Positions 22,968 to 41,121 are shown, numbered from the stretch's first letter. The stretch: DNA of 57,735 nucleotides from Mariprofundus ferrooxydans PV-1 (GCF_000153765.1 NZ_DS022294.1:534897-592631), one strand, 5' to 3'. Notes: generated by a model not told the origin, from the sequence alone. Numbers and translations: made by a program.

Positions 22968-23257
22968 GCACACCTGTTGAGATCCATCTGATGGGACGCA
23001 CCTTTTCCATCATCTCCAATGAAGATCCCGCTCATGTACAGGCTGCCGCTGAACTGGTGCAATCCAAGGTTGATGAACTCAGACAAATGGGGGCGTCGGT
23101 TGCCTCAGATCGCCTGCTGGCGCTGGCCTCATTGAACCTGGCCGGTGAGCTTTTGGCCGGCAAAGAAACAAAGATTGATGGGCTGGGCAACTTGATTTCC
23201 AGCCTGGACCATGTAGTATTACAAGCAGAAGGTTTAGCGAAAGCGCCCCTGCGTTGA
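22964..23257 (+). CDS. zapA: Cell-division protein ZapA
   Basis: ZapA bundles FtsZ protofilaments at mid-cell. The 97-residue protein has the N-terminal beta module (VEIHLMGRTFSIISNEDP), the helix VQSKVDELRQMG, and the segment RLLALASLNLAGELL, followed by the dimerising helix. The GTG start overlaps the preceding stop. The end is unusual: its last five codons and stop lie inside the predicted closing stem of the 6S RNA that follows. The zapA-6S RNA-fthC order matches E. coli. Confidence 0.92.
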   Translation: MSTPVEIHLMGRTFSIISNEDPAHVQAAAELVQSKVDELRQMGASVASDRLLALASLNLAGELLAGKETKIDGLGNLISSLDHVVLQAEGLAKAPLR

Positions 23258-23423
23258 GCGAATGGCAATCATGTTGCCTGAGCCGATACTTGTTGAACGG
23301 GAGCCAAGCTACGATGGCTGTGTGAATCCCTTTAGGGGATACCTGATGCCAGAGTGCTGCACCCACCTCTTGTTAGAGGGTTCGACAACAGATTGCCGCA
23401 ACGTCAACGCGGGGGCGCCCTCT
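23240..23423 (+). ncRNA. ssrS: 6S RNA
   Basis: 6S RNA binds RNA polymerase holoenzyme by mimicking an open promoter. The region between zapA and fthC matches the E. coli context. It contains TTGCCTGAGCCGATACTTG (23274-23292), nearly identical to the conserved 6S sequence. Pairing supports the fold: GCGCCCCTGCGTTGA (23243-23257) with TCAACGCGGGGGCGC (23404-23418), GGCAATC (23264-23270) with GATTGCC (23391-23397), and an apical hairpin ATCCC/GGGAT around 23326-23342. Ends are estimated from the closing stem, about 180 nucleotides in all. Small reading frames across this stretch should not be called. Confidence 0.88.
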
Positions 23424-36100: not shown

Positions 36101-36152
36101 TACGCATAACGGTTGCCTCATCGGTGCTGCTACCGGTTCGACTCGAACTGTT

Positions 36153-39100
36153 TTACAGCACTGATTCGGGAGTCGCATTGGTCGGCAGGTCGTTCATCTT
36201 CTCCAAAGCTGCCGGAGAACGATGCAAATCGAAAAACAGGTTCATTGACAGCGTCATCATGAACTCGCGGTGGAATACCGCCTTCAACGCCGGCGACAGT
36301 CTGGCATATGCCTGTGCCATATCCCGCTGCTGCTTTGGATTCATACCCTTCTGCCAACGTCTGGCTGCGCGAATGGCCAGATTGGTGACACGGCTATTCC
36401 ACCGCGCCGCCATCTCGGGTGAAATGCCATCCCCGGTGATCTGGTTAAACAAAAACATGGAGGCCTGAAATACGAGGGCATGCTGCATTTGTTCATTAAA
36501 CGCCTTGAAATCCTGTATAAGATGCTGATGCTCCGGGTCGGGTGCCAGAATAAGAATGCGCGCCCACTTGTCCGCATCCATCCGGACCTTTTTCTCAGCC
36601 GTCCTGGACAGCTTGACCTTCGCTTCTTTGCGACCTGTGTCATGGTTCAGGTTATATTCAGGCCGCTTCATCAAATCGGATATCGATTCATGCAACGACG
36701 TGCATCCATGCGCGCTCTGGTATGCGGTTTTACCATCCGCAGGCTGCTCAAAGCTCAGCCTGCCTTTTTCACCAAACCCGAGGCCGAAGACAAACGGAAC
36801 CGTTTTGATCACTTCGCGGCCAAACATAGTCGCTTTGGCCGTATCCTGTGTAACCAGCGACCATTGCTTCGGATCAAAATGATCAGGCAACGGAAACCGG
36901 GCAATCACCCCCTTCAGCTTGCCGAACGGCGGCAGACCGAAACGCTCCCATATGCCGGGGGCATTTAAGATCGCCTTGTATCGCTCCAGCAACTCTTTCC
37001 ACTGCGTTGATTCACGCGTGACACTGCGATCAACCAGCTGGCCATCGATATAGGTTTCCCGTGTAATAGTAATCGTCAGCTTCCAGTGCGCCCACAGTTC
37101 AAATATCATATAACCGACTGGCCTGAGGATGCGCCCGTCCCTGTTCTGCAATACCATCATGTGCGGTGCGCCCTGATCGGGCGATCTGGAGATCTCCTGG
37201 GCGATGCGAATCTCGCCCGCCCTGTTTTTGGGCTGATACAGCCAGCCATTGAGTTGAATCGTGATGCCACTGGCAGCATCAGAGATCTTCATCCAGTCTC
37301 CCTTGGGCCGGGGAGTCATGCGCGGGCCGCTATTTCCGCCAAACGGATTGCCGCCGCCAAACATGCCCAGCGCACCCTTGGCAACATCCCCGGCGGCAGA
37401 TTTCACCTTGCTCGCCGCTTTCTCACTATCCGGCATGGATAGAAGCACCGGGTTCGTCAGGCCGTTGATTTCTGCATCACACATCCCGCCATTCAGCTGA
37501 TCGGGGTCATGTGCCAGATAGCCTGTGCTTAGCTGGATATCCTTGCCGGAAAGTTTTCTGAAAGTGCCTGGCCCACCAGTCTTATCTTCACCCTTGATCG
37601 AACAGTGCCTCCTGATGCAAGCGACAACGCCGGATTCCGCTTTCAGATTAAGCTGCCGAACAGCCTGAATATCCTTTTCGGCATCCCGAAGCATGCGCTC
37701 CACATCCTTAATCTCCTCCTTGAGGCGTTGCTTGCGTTGCACCGAATATCCGGCTGCGTCTTCATGTCTGAGTGCGTAAAGATCATGATTCAAGCCCGAT
37801 GCACGTTTGGATTTCTCATTGTAATCGTATAATCCATGGTGATAACCGGCCAGCAGGGATCGGCATGCCTTGCATACCTTCTTTCCGCGAAACACACCCC
37901 CGCCCTGTTCCGGACTGAGCCAGTAGGCCTCTCCCTGTGCGAGCGCAGCAGGCTTCTTGCCATGCGCTTCCCCTTGTTGCAGATAGCCGGGTTCACCAGC
38001 AACAACATCGGTTCCCTTTGATGCTAGAACACCAGTCTTTTTCAAGCCCGGGCCTCCACTACCGGCATCATGTTCCGAATATCCGGTGCTTAACCCGACA
38101 TCCTTACCTGTAAGTTCCCTGTGCTTGCCCGGTCCGGGATAGGTGTAAATCGACACAAGGGATTTTCTGGGCTCTGGGCCCTGCTGTTTTGTAACCAGAA
38201 GGGCGACGCAGAGTTGCCTGGATTTGAGCCATAATCGCTCAGTAGTGCCGAACCTGGACCGGGCGGCGTCATCCTTCAGAATACGCCAGCCTTTTTTCGG
38301 CAATCGCACTTTATACCACGACTTGATGTTGGCAGGCGATTCGGTCGAGAGAAAGCTGAATGACTTGCCTGTGTCATGGTCAAATGATTCAGGAGACCTC
38401 GCAGCTGGCGGCCAGGGAATATCTGCTGGCATGTCCGATACATTTCGGCGGTAGTTTGTCGACGATTTCGGTTGGGAAAACAGACAACCACCGACCTGCA
38501 ACGAATTCGTATGTTCCGGAACATTCTTCGCGCCGATATTGCCGGATTTGCTTATCTTATTGCCTTTTGCCCGCACACCCGGCTTAACAGTCAAGCGGCT
38601 GTCGCCGGCTACTGCAGCTGTGCAAACCTGCAGTGGAGCATTAATTTGAATAATGGGTGCTTGCAAGTGCACTTTGTCTTTTTTCGCATGAACCAATCCT
38701 TTATACACATCGGTTTCGGAAAAGTGCTCATAGGTGAAGGACAGGCTTGTTTTCTCTCCGCCTGCCCTGCTTTGCTCCACATTCATTTCAACCACAAAAC
38801 TGTAAACGGGATTAGCGGAATCCGCTTCAAGCCTGTGGATTTTATATAACTTGAATTCGCCGGAATAGTACTGCGACATTCCTCCGGATGACTCGCGGCC
38901 TGTATTAATCGCTTCCGATGTGATTGCCGCGTTGCAGATGTCACGCCCGCTTTGTCTGGCCGTTTTCAGCTGTACCCGACTCAGACTGGCATCGCTGAGT
39001 AAGCTCTGCTTAACTTCCAACACATAATCTGTCGAAGCCACCCTCGCGTTATGGTGCTGATCAAACCGGTAGCTCTCTTTTCTGCCTTTTCCCCAGTCTA

Positions 39101-39398
39101 CTTTCACGCTGATGCGATGCGGTTCAATGATCATCGTTGCCGTCCCACGGCGCATTGCAATGGCATCCCAGACCTCAACCCCTTTCAGCACCACCTGTTG
39201 ATTTTTCACATCGGGCAGCTGCAACGAAACAGCATGTGCGGGTGTTATAAGTGCAAAAAAATAAATTATGCATACCAACAATATCCGGTACAAAAGGGCA
39301 ATGCCCCCCTTAAGATAATCAAGTCGTCCGCATCGTCCTTCACTGCGGAAAGAACGAACGGTCATATTGGCGTTATAGTTACTCGTGTCATATACCAT
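36153..39398 (-). CDS. Large secreted protein of unknown function with a duplicated motif
   Basis: About 1,081 residues; I do not recognise a family for the whole. ATG 39398 is chosen because AGGAGG lies six bases before it; it leaves a 35-residue tail before a clear signal sequence (ILLVCIIYFFALITPAHA), so TTG 39293 (after AAGGGGGG) is an alternative. Seen in order: a beta-rich N-terminal domain; a WYKVRLPKKGWRIL segment; repeat A (38067-38135, LTGKDVGLSTGYSEHD); KVCKACRS; a coiled coil; repeat B (37506-37574, LSGKDIQLSTGYLAHD); a glycine-rich FGGGNPFGGNSG linker; and a large C-terminal domain rich in tryptophan and basic residues. It follows the DUF4892-OmpA gene by 44 bases, so it is probably an envelope protein. 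Confidence 0.7.
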   Translation of the reverse strand: MVYDTSNYNANMTVRSFRSEGRCGRLDYLKGGIALLYRILLVCIIYFFALITPAHAVSLQLPDVKNQQVVLKGVEVWDAIAMRRGTATMIIEPHRISVKVDWGKGRKESYRFDQHHNARVASTDYVLEVKQSLLSDASLSRVQLKTARQSGRDICNAAITSEAINTGRESSGGMSQYYSGEFKLYKIHRLEADSANPVYSFVVEMNVEQSRAGGEKTSLSFTYEHFSETDVYKGLVHAKKDKVHLQAPIIQINAPLQVCTAAVAGDSRLTVKPGVRAKGNKISKSGNIGAKNVPEHTNSLQVGGCLFSQPKSSTNYRRNVSDMPADIPWPPAARSPESFDHDTGKSFSFLSTESPANIKSWYKVRLPKKGWRILKDDAARSRFGTTERLWLKSRQLCVALLVTKQQGPEPRKSLVSIYTYPGPGKHRELTGKDVGLSTGYSEHDAGSGGPGLKKTGVLASKGTDVVAGEPGYLQQGEAHGKKPAALAQGEAYWLSPEQGGGVFRGKKVCKACRSLLAGYHHGLYDYNEKSKRASGLNHDLYALRHEDAAGYSVQRKQRLKEEIKDVERMLRDAEKDIQAVRQLNLKAESGVVACIRRHCSIKGEDKTGGPGTFRKLSGKDIQLSTGYLAHDPDQLNGGMCDAEINGLTNPVLLSMPDSEKAASKVKSAAGDVAKGALGMFGGGNPFGGNSGPRMTPRPKGDWMKISDAASGITIQLNGWLYQPKNRAGEIRIAQEISRSPDQGAPHMMVLQNRDGRILRPVGYMIFELWAHWKLTITITRETYIDGQLVDRSVTRESTQWKELLERYKAILNAPGIWERFGLPPFGKLKGVIARFPLPDHFDPKQWSLVTQDTAKATMFGREVIKTVPFVFGLGFGEKGRLSFEQPADGKTAYQSAHGCTSLHESISDLMKRPEYNLNHDTGRKEAKVKLSRTAEKKVRMDADKWARILILAPDPEHQHLIQDFKAFNEQMQHALVFQASMFLFNQITGDGISPEMAARWNSRVTNLAIRAARRWQKGMNPKQQRDMAQAYARLSPALKAVFHREFMMTLSMNLFFDLHRSPAALEKMNDLPTNATPESVL

Positions 39399-39442
39399 CA
39401 TCCCCCTCCTAAACACCTGACACCACTTCCTCGGCTAGAGAC

Positions 39443-40420
39443 TTATTGCTCGATGATCTCCACCCGACGATTTTCGGCCCGCCCCTCTGCACTGCGATTA
39501 CTGGCGATCGGTGCCAGATAACCGATGCCGGCTGCGCCAAGACGCGCTCGCTTGATGCCGTAATCGCTCTCCAGGGAGTTCATCACCGCTTTGGCCCTGC
39601 GTTGTGACAGGTCCATATTGTACTGCAGGTCGCCCTGATTATCGGTGTGGCCAACCAGGATGATTTTCAGATCCGGATTGTTTTTCAACATCAAAGCAAT
39701 CTGATCAATGGCGGGGCGCGAATCCGCTTTGATTATGTCGCTGTCAGTATCGAAATGAATCTGGTGAAGTGCGATATGCCCCTGCTGCGTGATCCCATTC
39801 GCCAGATCCTTAGCCTTGATGAATACCATCTCCTGCTGCATCGGCTCAACCTCAACCACATTAAGCTCGGCCATGGTTCTCCCTGCCCAGGCTCGCACAA
39901 CGGATGAGTCATAGTTGTAGACCAGCAGGGAGACATAGATATCTCCCTCCTTGCGCTGCAGGTAAGCAGAGAGGTAGCGGAAATCGCCGCCCAACTGCGT
40001 CGCATAGTCACGCAGACCGCCGAGCGTCTGCGCTCCAACAAACCACGACCACCAACCACAGCCGCCATTACCGGCGCAGCTGAACAGGGTAGAGAAACCC
40101 TGGGCCTTGAGCGTTTTTTCGTAATTTCGAAAGACCTGCAATGTTGTCTTTTCAGCAGGCAGTAAATACAAATTGCGCGTGATGCGTCCTTCAACGCGCT
40201 TGTCTTTTTCAAGTCGCTTGTCGTTATATCCGGCGTCGTAAGCCTTGCCGAGCGCCATGATCAGTTCGTCATAGTCGCTAACCTTATGGCCGATAATTTC
40301 GGAACCTGCAAAACGTGGAAACAGCGGGTGATCGCTGCTGCCTTGAATATCCGCCCATGCCGCCCCTTGCATTACCGTAAGCGCTGCGAACAGACAGATG
40401 AATCGTTTAAAATTATTCAT
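39443..40420 (-). CDS. DUF4892-OmpA family envelope protein
   Basis: A 325-residue exported protein. The signal peptide ends MQGAAWA. The first part, SSDHPLFPRFAGSEIIGHK and the segments after it, matches DUF4892. The C-terminal 120 residues are an OmpA peptidoglycan-binding domain with IHFDTDSDIIKADSRPAIDQ and VGHTDNQGDLQYNMDLSQRR, followed by NRRVEIIEQ. It should therefore sit in the periplasm or outer membrane and bind the cell wall. ATG 40420 has AAGGAGGAGACC before it. It is the first gene of a two-gene unit with the large secreted protein. Confidence 0.9.
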   Translation of the reverse strand: MNNFKRFICLFAALTVMQGAAWADIQGSSDHPLFPRFAGSEIIGHKVSDYDELIMALGKAYDAGYNDKRLEKDKRVEGRITRNLYLLPAEKTTLQVFRNYEKTLKAQGFSTLFSCAGNGGCGWWSWFVGAQTLGGLRDYATQLGGDFRYLSAYLQRKEGDIYVSLLVYNYDSSVVRAWAGRTMAELNVVEVEPMQQEMVFIKAKDLANGITQQGHIALHQIHFDTDSDIIKADSRPAIDQIALMLKNNPDLKIILVGHTDNQGDLQYNMDLSQRRAKAVMNSLESDYGIKRARLGAAGIGYLAPIASNRSAEGRAENRRVEIIEQ

Positions 40421-41121
40421 GGTCTCCTCCTTACAGGATACATTCAATCACATATACAAAGCAGTGATTTTGTAACCAGGCCCCCATTCATGACACAAAA
40501 GGCAGCTCCAGACGGAAAGCGGAGGCATCTCTATTCCAATCCTTATACTTAAAGACCAATTACACATAAAAGTCCATATCGAATATAACCTGATCGCGTT
40601 CGGATCACTGCAAATACCGGGCACTCTCACCAGATATCGACGGCACAGTAATCGTTTGTATGACACATGTTTTGCCAGGACTACCCGGTCATTGTCATCA
40701 ACAACGGCCTCAAGCGTACAGCTGGAAAAATTGCACTTTTGTATACGTTACATTGGGAAATCAGAATCTTTTTTCAAATGGGTCAAACAGGAAACAAACG
40801 GTCGGAGGCTTCTTCGAAACCAGTGAGAATCGCCTGAAAACTGGACTAAGGACGTTTGAACGGTTTCATAGCCATCAGCAGGGACCTGATCTGGATATGC
40901 CGACACAACGATGCGACGCTGCCAACCGGCTGAATGGATCAGACAGCTATCGCTCGTGGTTATGACGGGACTCTTCCTCTCTGGATGTGAGATAAAGAAA
41001 TCGACACGAGATGATTCCGATTCCATAAAAATTCAGAACTGCGATACTGAGTAAACCGGTGAATTTTGAAGTGCTAAACCATGACATTCGCAGCATATTG
41101 AATAACCGCTGAATCAAAGCA
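40421..41121. other. 700-base gap, possibly with relict coding
   Basis: No convincing gene. The first 200 bases are AT-rich and probably hold the promoter of the DUF4892-OmpA gene. On the minus strand a reading frame ends at 40947 and could give a 46-residue peptide with one hydrophobic stretch (LLSIAVLNFYGIGIIS), but it has no ribosome site. Another minus-strand frame around 40770-41026 reads in a protein-like way without a match I know. Base composition is unlike the flanking genes, so a decayed gene is possible. Confidence 0.4.

What the first reader, a model, noticed from the sequence alone, without database searches (positions are those of the whole stretch)
36153..40420. Two-gene envelope operon with a giant uncharacterised protein
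A DUF4892-OmpA cell-wall-binding protein is followed after 44 bases by a secreted protein of about 1,080 residues that I cannot place in a family. The large protein joins a beta-rich N-terminal domain, a coiled coil, a CxxC and a large C-terminal domain. The pair has the look of a peptidoglycan-anchored assembly, which I do not recognise from known systems.
Basis: partly seen in the sequence, partly recalled or inferred. Interest (0 to 1): 0.65.

Follow-up and report, generated by a model that had tools for sequence, protein, structure and literature searches.

The report
Swapped-in two-gene cell-envelope cassette
An iron-oxidising marine bacterium (Mariprofundus) carries an unusual two-gene cassette, swapped in where a relative keeps other genes, that pairs a cell-wall-gripping protein of a known type with a giant secreted protein built around a domain that has no entry in the protein-family databases; it is real and undescribed, but it is a local accessory pair rather than a conserved machine.

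Summary
On the minus strand a DUF4892-OmpA gene (39443-40420) is followed after 44 bases by a 1,081-residue secreted protein (36153-39398) with no Pfam, NCBIfam or PDB sequence match. The OmpA domain keeps the expected peptidoglycan-binding residues, but the pair is not conserved: DUF4892-OmpA genes are widespread without the giant protein, and the giant protein's relatives occur without DUF4892.

New here: (1) Residues 654-899 form an undescribed domain (Ala/Gly-rich segment plus about 200-residue beta-domain), also found in two other Mariprofundus and several Alphaproteobacteria, with different flanking modules. (2) The CxxC belongs to a four-cysteine arrangement bracketing the coiled coil, so a disulfide staple is likelier than a redox site. 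(3) Residues 299-424 look Mog1/PsbP-like (PsbP, DcrB, EagT6/SciW), the fold published for DUF4892 in PA1624; both proteins thus carry the same fold class. (4) In the closest relative the same flanks enclose a binding protein and a sensor gene; the window keeps the sensor's 3' relic, so the cassette replaced them.

Best reading: an accessory envelope scaffold held to peptidoglycan by its partner. Biochemical role unproven.

The parts
36153..39398 (-). giant secreted protein, 1,081 aa
39231..39293 (-). hydrophobic signal-peptide-like stretch (aa 36-56, ends AHA)
   Evidence: hydropathy; sequence
38505..39230 (-). orphan N-terminal region (aa 57-298), beta-strands predicted but mostly at low confidence; no relative found in 398 genomes
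38127..38504 (-). Mog1/PsbP-like domain (aa 299-424), the best-modelled part of the N-terminal half
   Evidence: sequence relatives in G068 and G041
38067..38135 (-). internal repeat copy 1 (aa 422-444, GPGKHRELTGKDVGLSTGYSEHD)
   Evidence: 15 of 23 residues identical, score 83 against at most 44 in 100 shuffles
37506..37574 (-). internal repeat copy 2 (aa 609-631, GPGTFRKLSGKDIQLSTGYLAHD)
37863..37874 (-). CKAC (aa 509-512), first cysteine pair of the hairpin
37605..37742 (-). long helix / coiled coil (aa 553-598)
37602..37619 (-). CIRRHC (aa 594-599), second cysteine pair of the hairpin
37323..37427 (-). Ala/Gly-rich amphipathic segment (aa 658-692)
36705..37304 (-). beta-rich core domain (aa 699-898), undescribed family
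36156..36701 (-). helical C-terminal region (aa 900-1081), shared only with Mariprofundus MAG G059
39443..40420 (-). DUF4892-OmpA protein, 325 aa
40040..40351 (-). DUF4892 domain (Mog1/PsbP-like in the solved PA1624)
   Evidence: PMC7716261
39467..39754 (-). OmpA-type peptidoglycan-binding domain
36101..41030 (.). variable slot: segment not shared with closest relative G051, containing the whole operon
41031..41113 (+). relic of the 3' end of the sensor gene that occupies the slot in G051

Best explanation
This is an accessory (replacement) cassette of two closely spaced, probably co-transcribed envelope genes. Shown by sequence: a DUF4892-OmpA protein with intact peptidoglycan-binding residues, followed by a protein with a signal-like stretch made of an orphan N-terminal region, a Mog1/PsbP-like domain, a coiled coil bracketed by two cysteine pairs, an Ala/Gly-rich segment, a beta-rich core domain and a helical tail; and replacement of other genes between conserved flanks. 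Inferred: both proteins are exported; the OmpA domain pins the partner to peptidoglycan; the two Mog1/PsbP-like domains, or one of them and another part of the giant protein, bind each other, so that the giant protein is held in the periplasm or at the outer membrane as a scaffold; the beta-rich core and the variable end modules do the binding work. The molecular target is not known.
For: 44-base spacing on one strand and a common variable segment. OmpA domain above cut-off with the conserved D/R pair. Foldseek hits of aa 299-424 to PsbP 1v2b, DcrB 6e8a, Mog1, EagT6 and SciW, most at probability 0.93-1.00; DUF4892 of PA1624 is described as Mog1p/PsbP-like with DcrB as closest relative (PMC7716261). 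Core domain conserved across Mariprofundus and Alphaproteobacteria with different end modules. Conserved cysteine pairs at both ends of the coiled coil. In G041 a DUF4892 gene lies in a cluster with three small secreted proteins that resemble the aa 299-424 domain, an independent hint that the two domain types work together.
Against: The pairing is seen in one genome only. The fold match of aa 299-424 rests on a model from three sequences; Foldseek E-values are only 0.008-0.1 and TM-scores about 0.4 by target length. A direct profile comparison of that domain with DUF4892 gave nothing (tiny alignments). The C-terminal half was modelled at mean pLDDT 52.7. No expression, localisation or interaction data.
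Confidence: 0.45

Rival explanations
1. The two genes are unrelated in function: a standalone DUF4892-OmpA envelope protein and a standalone secreted protein that arrived side by side.
For: Each occurs without the other in other genomes, and neighbourhoods of both kinds are diverse.
Against: 44-base spacing, a shared variable slot and the same fold class in both proteins; G041 clusters DUF4892 with similar small proteins.
Confidence: 0.3
2. The giant protein is membrane-active: the Ala/Gly-rich amphipathic segment plus beta-domain inserts into or perforates a membrane, distantly like leukocidin-type beta-pore proteins, and the partner restrains or anchors it.
For: Top Foldseek matches of the C-terminal half are leukocidin-type pore proteins (E 1.8e-4, probability 1.00); the segment is amphipathic (93rd percentile within the protein).
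Against: TM-scores only 0.16/0.29 and rmsd above 15 A; no leukocidin match by Pfam or by profile search of PDB sequences; low-confidence model.
Confidence: 0.08
3. The giant protein is a variable-tip effector or conflict protein: a constant core carrying exchangeable C-terminal domains (helical in Mariprofundus, DUF4347-like caspase-type in family f121).
For: C-terminal modules differ between families around a constant core; the gene is patchy and sits in a replacement slot.
Against: No adjacent immunity-like gene; in genus g431 the gene is present in all four genomes held, with neighbours conserved within pairs of them, so it is stably inherited there; no delivery signal or toxin family match.
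Confidence: 0.1
4. The operon belongs to iron-stalk formation or iron oxidation, hallmark traits of these bacteria.
For: Only the organism's lifestyle.
Against: Core domain in 3 of 23 genomes of the genus and DUF4892 in one, too patchy for a hallmark trait.
Confidence: 0.03

Closest known systems
DUF4892 (PF16234), PA1624 of Pseudomonas aeruginosa
   Same: DUF4892 domain followed by an OmpA-like domain; conserved C-x(4-5)-CG disulfide motif; periplasmic
   Different: PA1624's OmpA-like domain is degenerate and lacks the glycan-binding motifs (PMC7716261); the window protein keeps them
Other DUF4892-OmpA fusions (loci L065, L073, L074, L075, L076, L079, L081)
   Same: Same two domains in the same order, same binding residues
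   Different: Not followed by a giant protein with the core domain
Mog1/PsbP/DcrB/Eag fold superfamily
   Same: Predicted fold of aa 299-424
   Different: Embedded in a 1,081-residue secreted protein; no significant sequence match
Core-domain proteins of M. erugo (717 aa) and Alphaproteobacteria (about 615-1,387 aa)
   Same: Ala/Gly-rich segment plus beta-domain; M. erugo and family f223 also share the cysteine-bracketed coiled coil
   Different: No Mog1/PsbP-like domain seen, no DUF4892-OmpA partner where checked, different N- and C-terminal modules

Membership tests
DUF4892 (PF16234) | Pfam score above gathering cut-off 28.8 | tested here: met
   41.4 bits
DUF4892 (PF16234) | Cysteine pair of the PA1624 disulfide | tested here: met
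   FSCAGNGGCG against FWCERRDCG in PA1624 and YSCREEECG in G041
OmpA C-terminal domain (PF00691) | Pfam score above cut-off 27.2 | tested here: met
   65.8 bits
OmpA C-terminal domain (PF00691) | Peptidoglycan-binding Asp (HTD) and Arg (LSxxRA), 15 residues apart | tested here: met
   D260 and R275, conserved in seven relatives; that these residues bind peptidoglycan is established knowledge, binding itself not tested
Mog1/PsbP-like fold | Structural match to solved members | tested here: met
   PsbP, DcrB, Mog1, EagT6, SciW, most at probability 0.93-1.00, but E-values 0.008-0.1 and TM about 0.4
Mog1/PsbP-like fold | Sequence match to a Pfam member family (for example DUF1795) | tested here: not met
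   No hit for the window protein
Leukocidin-type pore proteins | Sequence profile match | tested here: not met
Leukocidin-type pore proteins | Fold match | tested here: inconclusive
   E 1.8e-4 and probability 1.00, but TM 0.16/0.29, rmsd 15.6 A, low-confidence model
Conserved DUF4892-OmpA + giant protein operon | Same gene order in other genomes | tested here: not met
   0 of 20 DUF4892 neighbourhoods; no DUF4892 in 7 genomes with the core domain
DUF4347-bearing relatives | C-terminal DUF4347-like domain | tested here: not met
   Present sub-threshold in f121 proteins, absent from the window protein

The most novel reading that the evidence does not exclude
The Mog1/PsbP-like domain works as a built-in chaperone, as EagT6 and SciW do for effector transmembrane segments: it shields the Ala/Gly-rich amphipathic segment of the same giant protein until a signal releases it into a membrane, while the partner's DUF4892 domain and OmpA domain hold the loaded complex on peptidoglycan.
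Probability: 0.05. Interest if true: 0.7.

Novelty: new variant of a known kind. Interest (0 to 1): 0.35.

Why it matters
It defines a secreted domain family with no Pfam entry, shared by Zetaproteobacteria and Alphaproteobacteria and combined with different end modules; it suggests that DUF4892, whose function is unknown, can be teamed with a second Mog1/PsbP-like protein; and it documents a replacement of a sensor module by an envelope cassette at one locus, which gives a natural comparison for testing function.

Tried and rejected
Whole-protein PDB search: nothing. Plasmid and phage collections: no relative. A genome-contig scan with the whole protein found none; with the core alignment it found only M. 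erugo and a Mariprofundus MAG. The G001 match (E 9e-4) falls in a 2,007-residue helical/TPR-like protein and is taken as chance. Profile comparison of the aa 299-424 group with DUF4892: no signal. Viral structure library: no credible match. Leukocidin hit considered and not accepted. Direct or inverted repeats at the slot ends: none of 9 bases or more found. Stalk/iron role rejected on distribution.

Full report
Observation. Two genes on the minus strand: DUF4892-OmpA (39443-40420, 325 aa) and, after 44 bases, a 1,081-aa protein (36153-39398). Shuffles, codon usage and homologues show that the long frame is coding. No Pfam, NCBIfam or PDB sequence family covers the giant protein.

The partner. 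DUF4892 and OmpA domains score above their cut-offs. DUF4892 has one published structure, PA1624, with a Mog1p/PsbP-like N-domain closest to DcrB and a degenerate OmpA-like C-domain (PMC7716261). The window protein has the same plan, but its OmpA domain keeps the HTD...LSxxRA residues (D260, R275), as do seven other DUF4892-OmpA fusions. DUF4892 occurs in 32 of 329 genomes sampled from the phylum; of 20 neighbourhoods examined, at least eight contain OmpA fusions and none contains the core domain of the giant protein. The sample includes many same-genus genomes, so the fraction is not a rate for the phylum.

The core domain. A 46%-identical stretch occurs in M. erugo and a 43%-identical C-terminal piece in the MAG. 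Invariant features include the Gly-rich stretch, a SPDxG-like turn, LWxxWxL and the W and G of GLWKxxG. No Pfam family covers it in any member scanned. End modules differ: DUF4347-like (sub-threshold, with WGHG and INQCKAG) in G544 and G633; helical Cys-flanked segments in G264; a helical tail in the window and the MAG, while M. erugo stops just after the core. None of the seven genomes checked that have the core domain has DUF4892 (G706, G707, G708 and G720 were not checked).

The cysteine hairpin. The CxxC lies before the coiled coil, and a second pair (CIRRHC) closes it. M. erugo (226/229 and 388/393) and family f223 (for example 194/198 and 329/333) have the same arrangement just before the core. 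A disulfide-stapled hairpin is inferred, not shown; the automatic alignment did not place the first pair of all sequences in one column.

The Mog1/PsbP-like domain. In the model of aa 57-545 aa about 299-424 is the well-modelled part, besides a short N-terminal stretch; Foldseek returns PsbP, DcrB, Mog1, EagT6 and SciW. Sequence relatives are a 281-aa secreted protein in G068 and, by motif and alignment only, three small secreted proteins upstream of a DUF4892 gene in G041. A sequence-profile link to DUF4892 was not found, so the shared fold is the claim, not homology.

The internal repeat. Residues 422-444 and 609-631 match at 15 of 23 positions, far above shuffles; they bracket the cysteine hairpin. 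In the core alignment copy 2 lies opposite the VGxNxKxGSGA motif that precedes the Gly-rich stretch in Alphaproteobacteria; this correspondence is only suggestive.

The C-terminal half. The model (mean pLDDT 52.7) gives a coiled coil, disordered Gly-rich linker, beta-domain and helical tail. Leukocidin-type pore proteins head the Foldseek list, but superpose poorly and have no sequence support. This is recorded as a weak lead.

The locus. In G051, the closest relative by the flanking genes, the DEAD-box gene (89% DNA identity, to window 36100) and the MEKHLA-permease region (85.5%, from 41031) are the same, but between them lie a NitT/TauT-like binding protein and a PAS-type sensor instead of the operon (names from reading the sequences, not from a family search). 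Window 41031-41113 retains a relic of that sensor's 3' end (LSKPVNF...IRSIL), so the G051 arrangement is likely older and the operon replaced it. The slot's G+C is 0.518 against 0.565-0.572 in the flanks. M. erugo and the MAG carry their homologues at other loci.

Mechanism. Shown: operon-like arrangement, domains, binding residues, distribution, replacement. Inferred: export, peptidoglycan anchoring, pairing through the Mog1/PsbP-like domains, scaffold role. Unknown: target and phenotype.

Verdict. Real and undescribed, but an accessory pair in one genome built from a known envelope family plus a member of an unnamed domain family. Interest 0.35.

Noticed in passing
window 41031-41113 (+) and L116:5292-7880: 3' relic of a PAS-type sensor gene that is intact in relative G051; shows the direction of the gene replacement.
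   Followed up: yes
L023:8305-11037, L024:6008-8764, L034:6546-9194: Alphaproteobacterial core-domain proteins end in a DUF4347-like domain with WGHG and INQCKAG motifs, possibly a caspase/CHAT-type His/Cys pair.
   Followed up: partly
L016:7409-11572: 1,387-residue relative with several helical segments, each bounded by cysteines, before the core domain.
   Followed up: partly
L022:5971-8598: Second copy of the core-domain gene in G633, split by an in-frame stop.
   Followed up: no
L033:2-3400: Cluster in G041 of three small secreted proteins with an IPxYPGA...SPxxVxxWY motif, a TIGR00266/AIM24-like gene and a DUF4892 gene at the contig end.
   Followed up: partly
window 23243-23419 (+): 6S RNA (Rfam RF00013, 68.8 bits).
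   Followed up: no
L026:6147-12170: 2,007-residue secreted repeat protein with a CHAT-like C-terminal end near a FecR-like gene in G001; unrelated to the finding.
   Followed up: no
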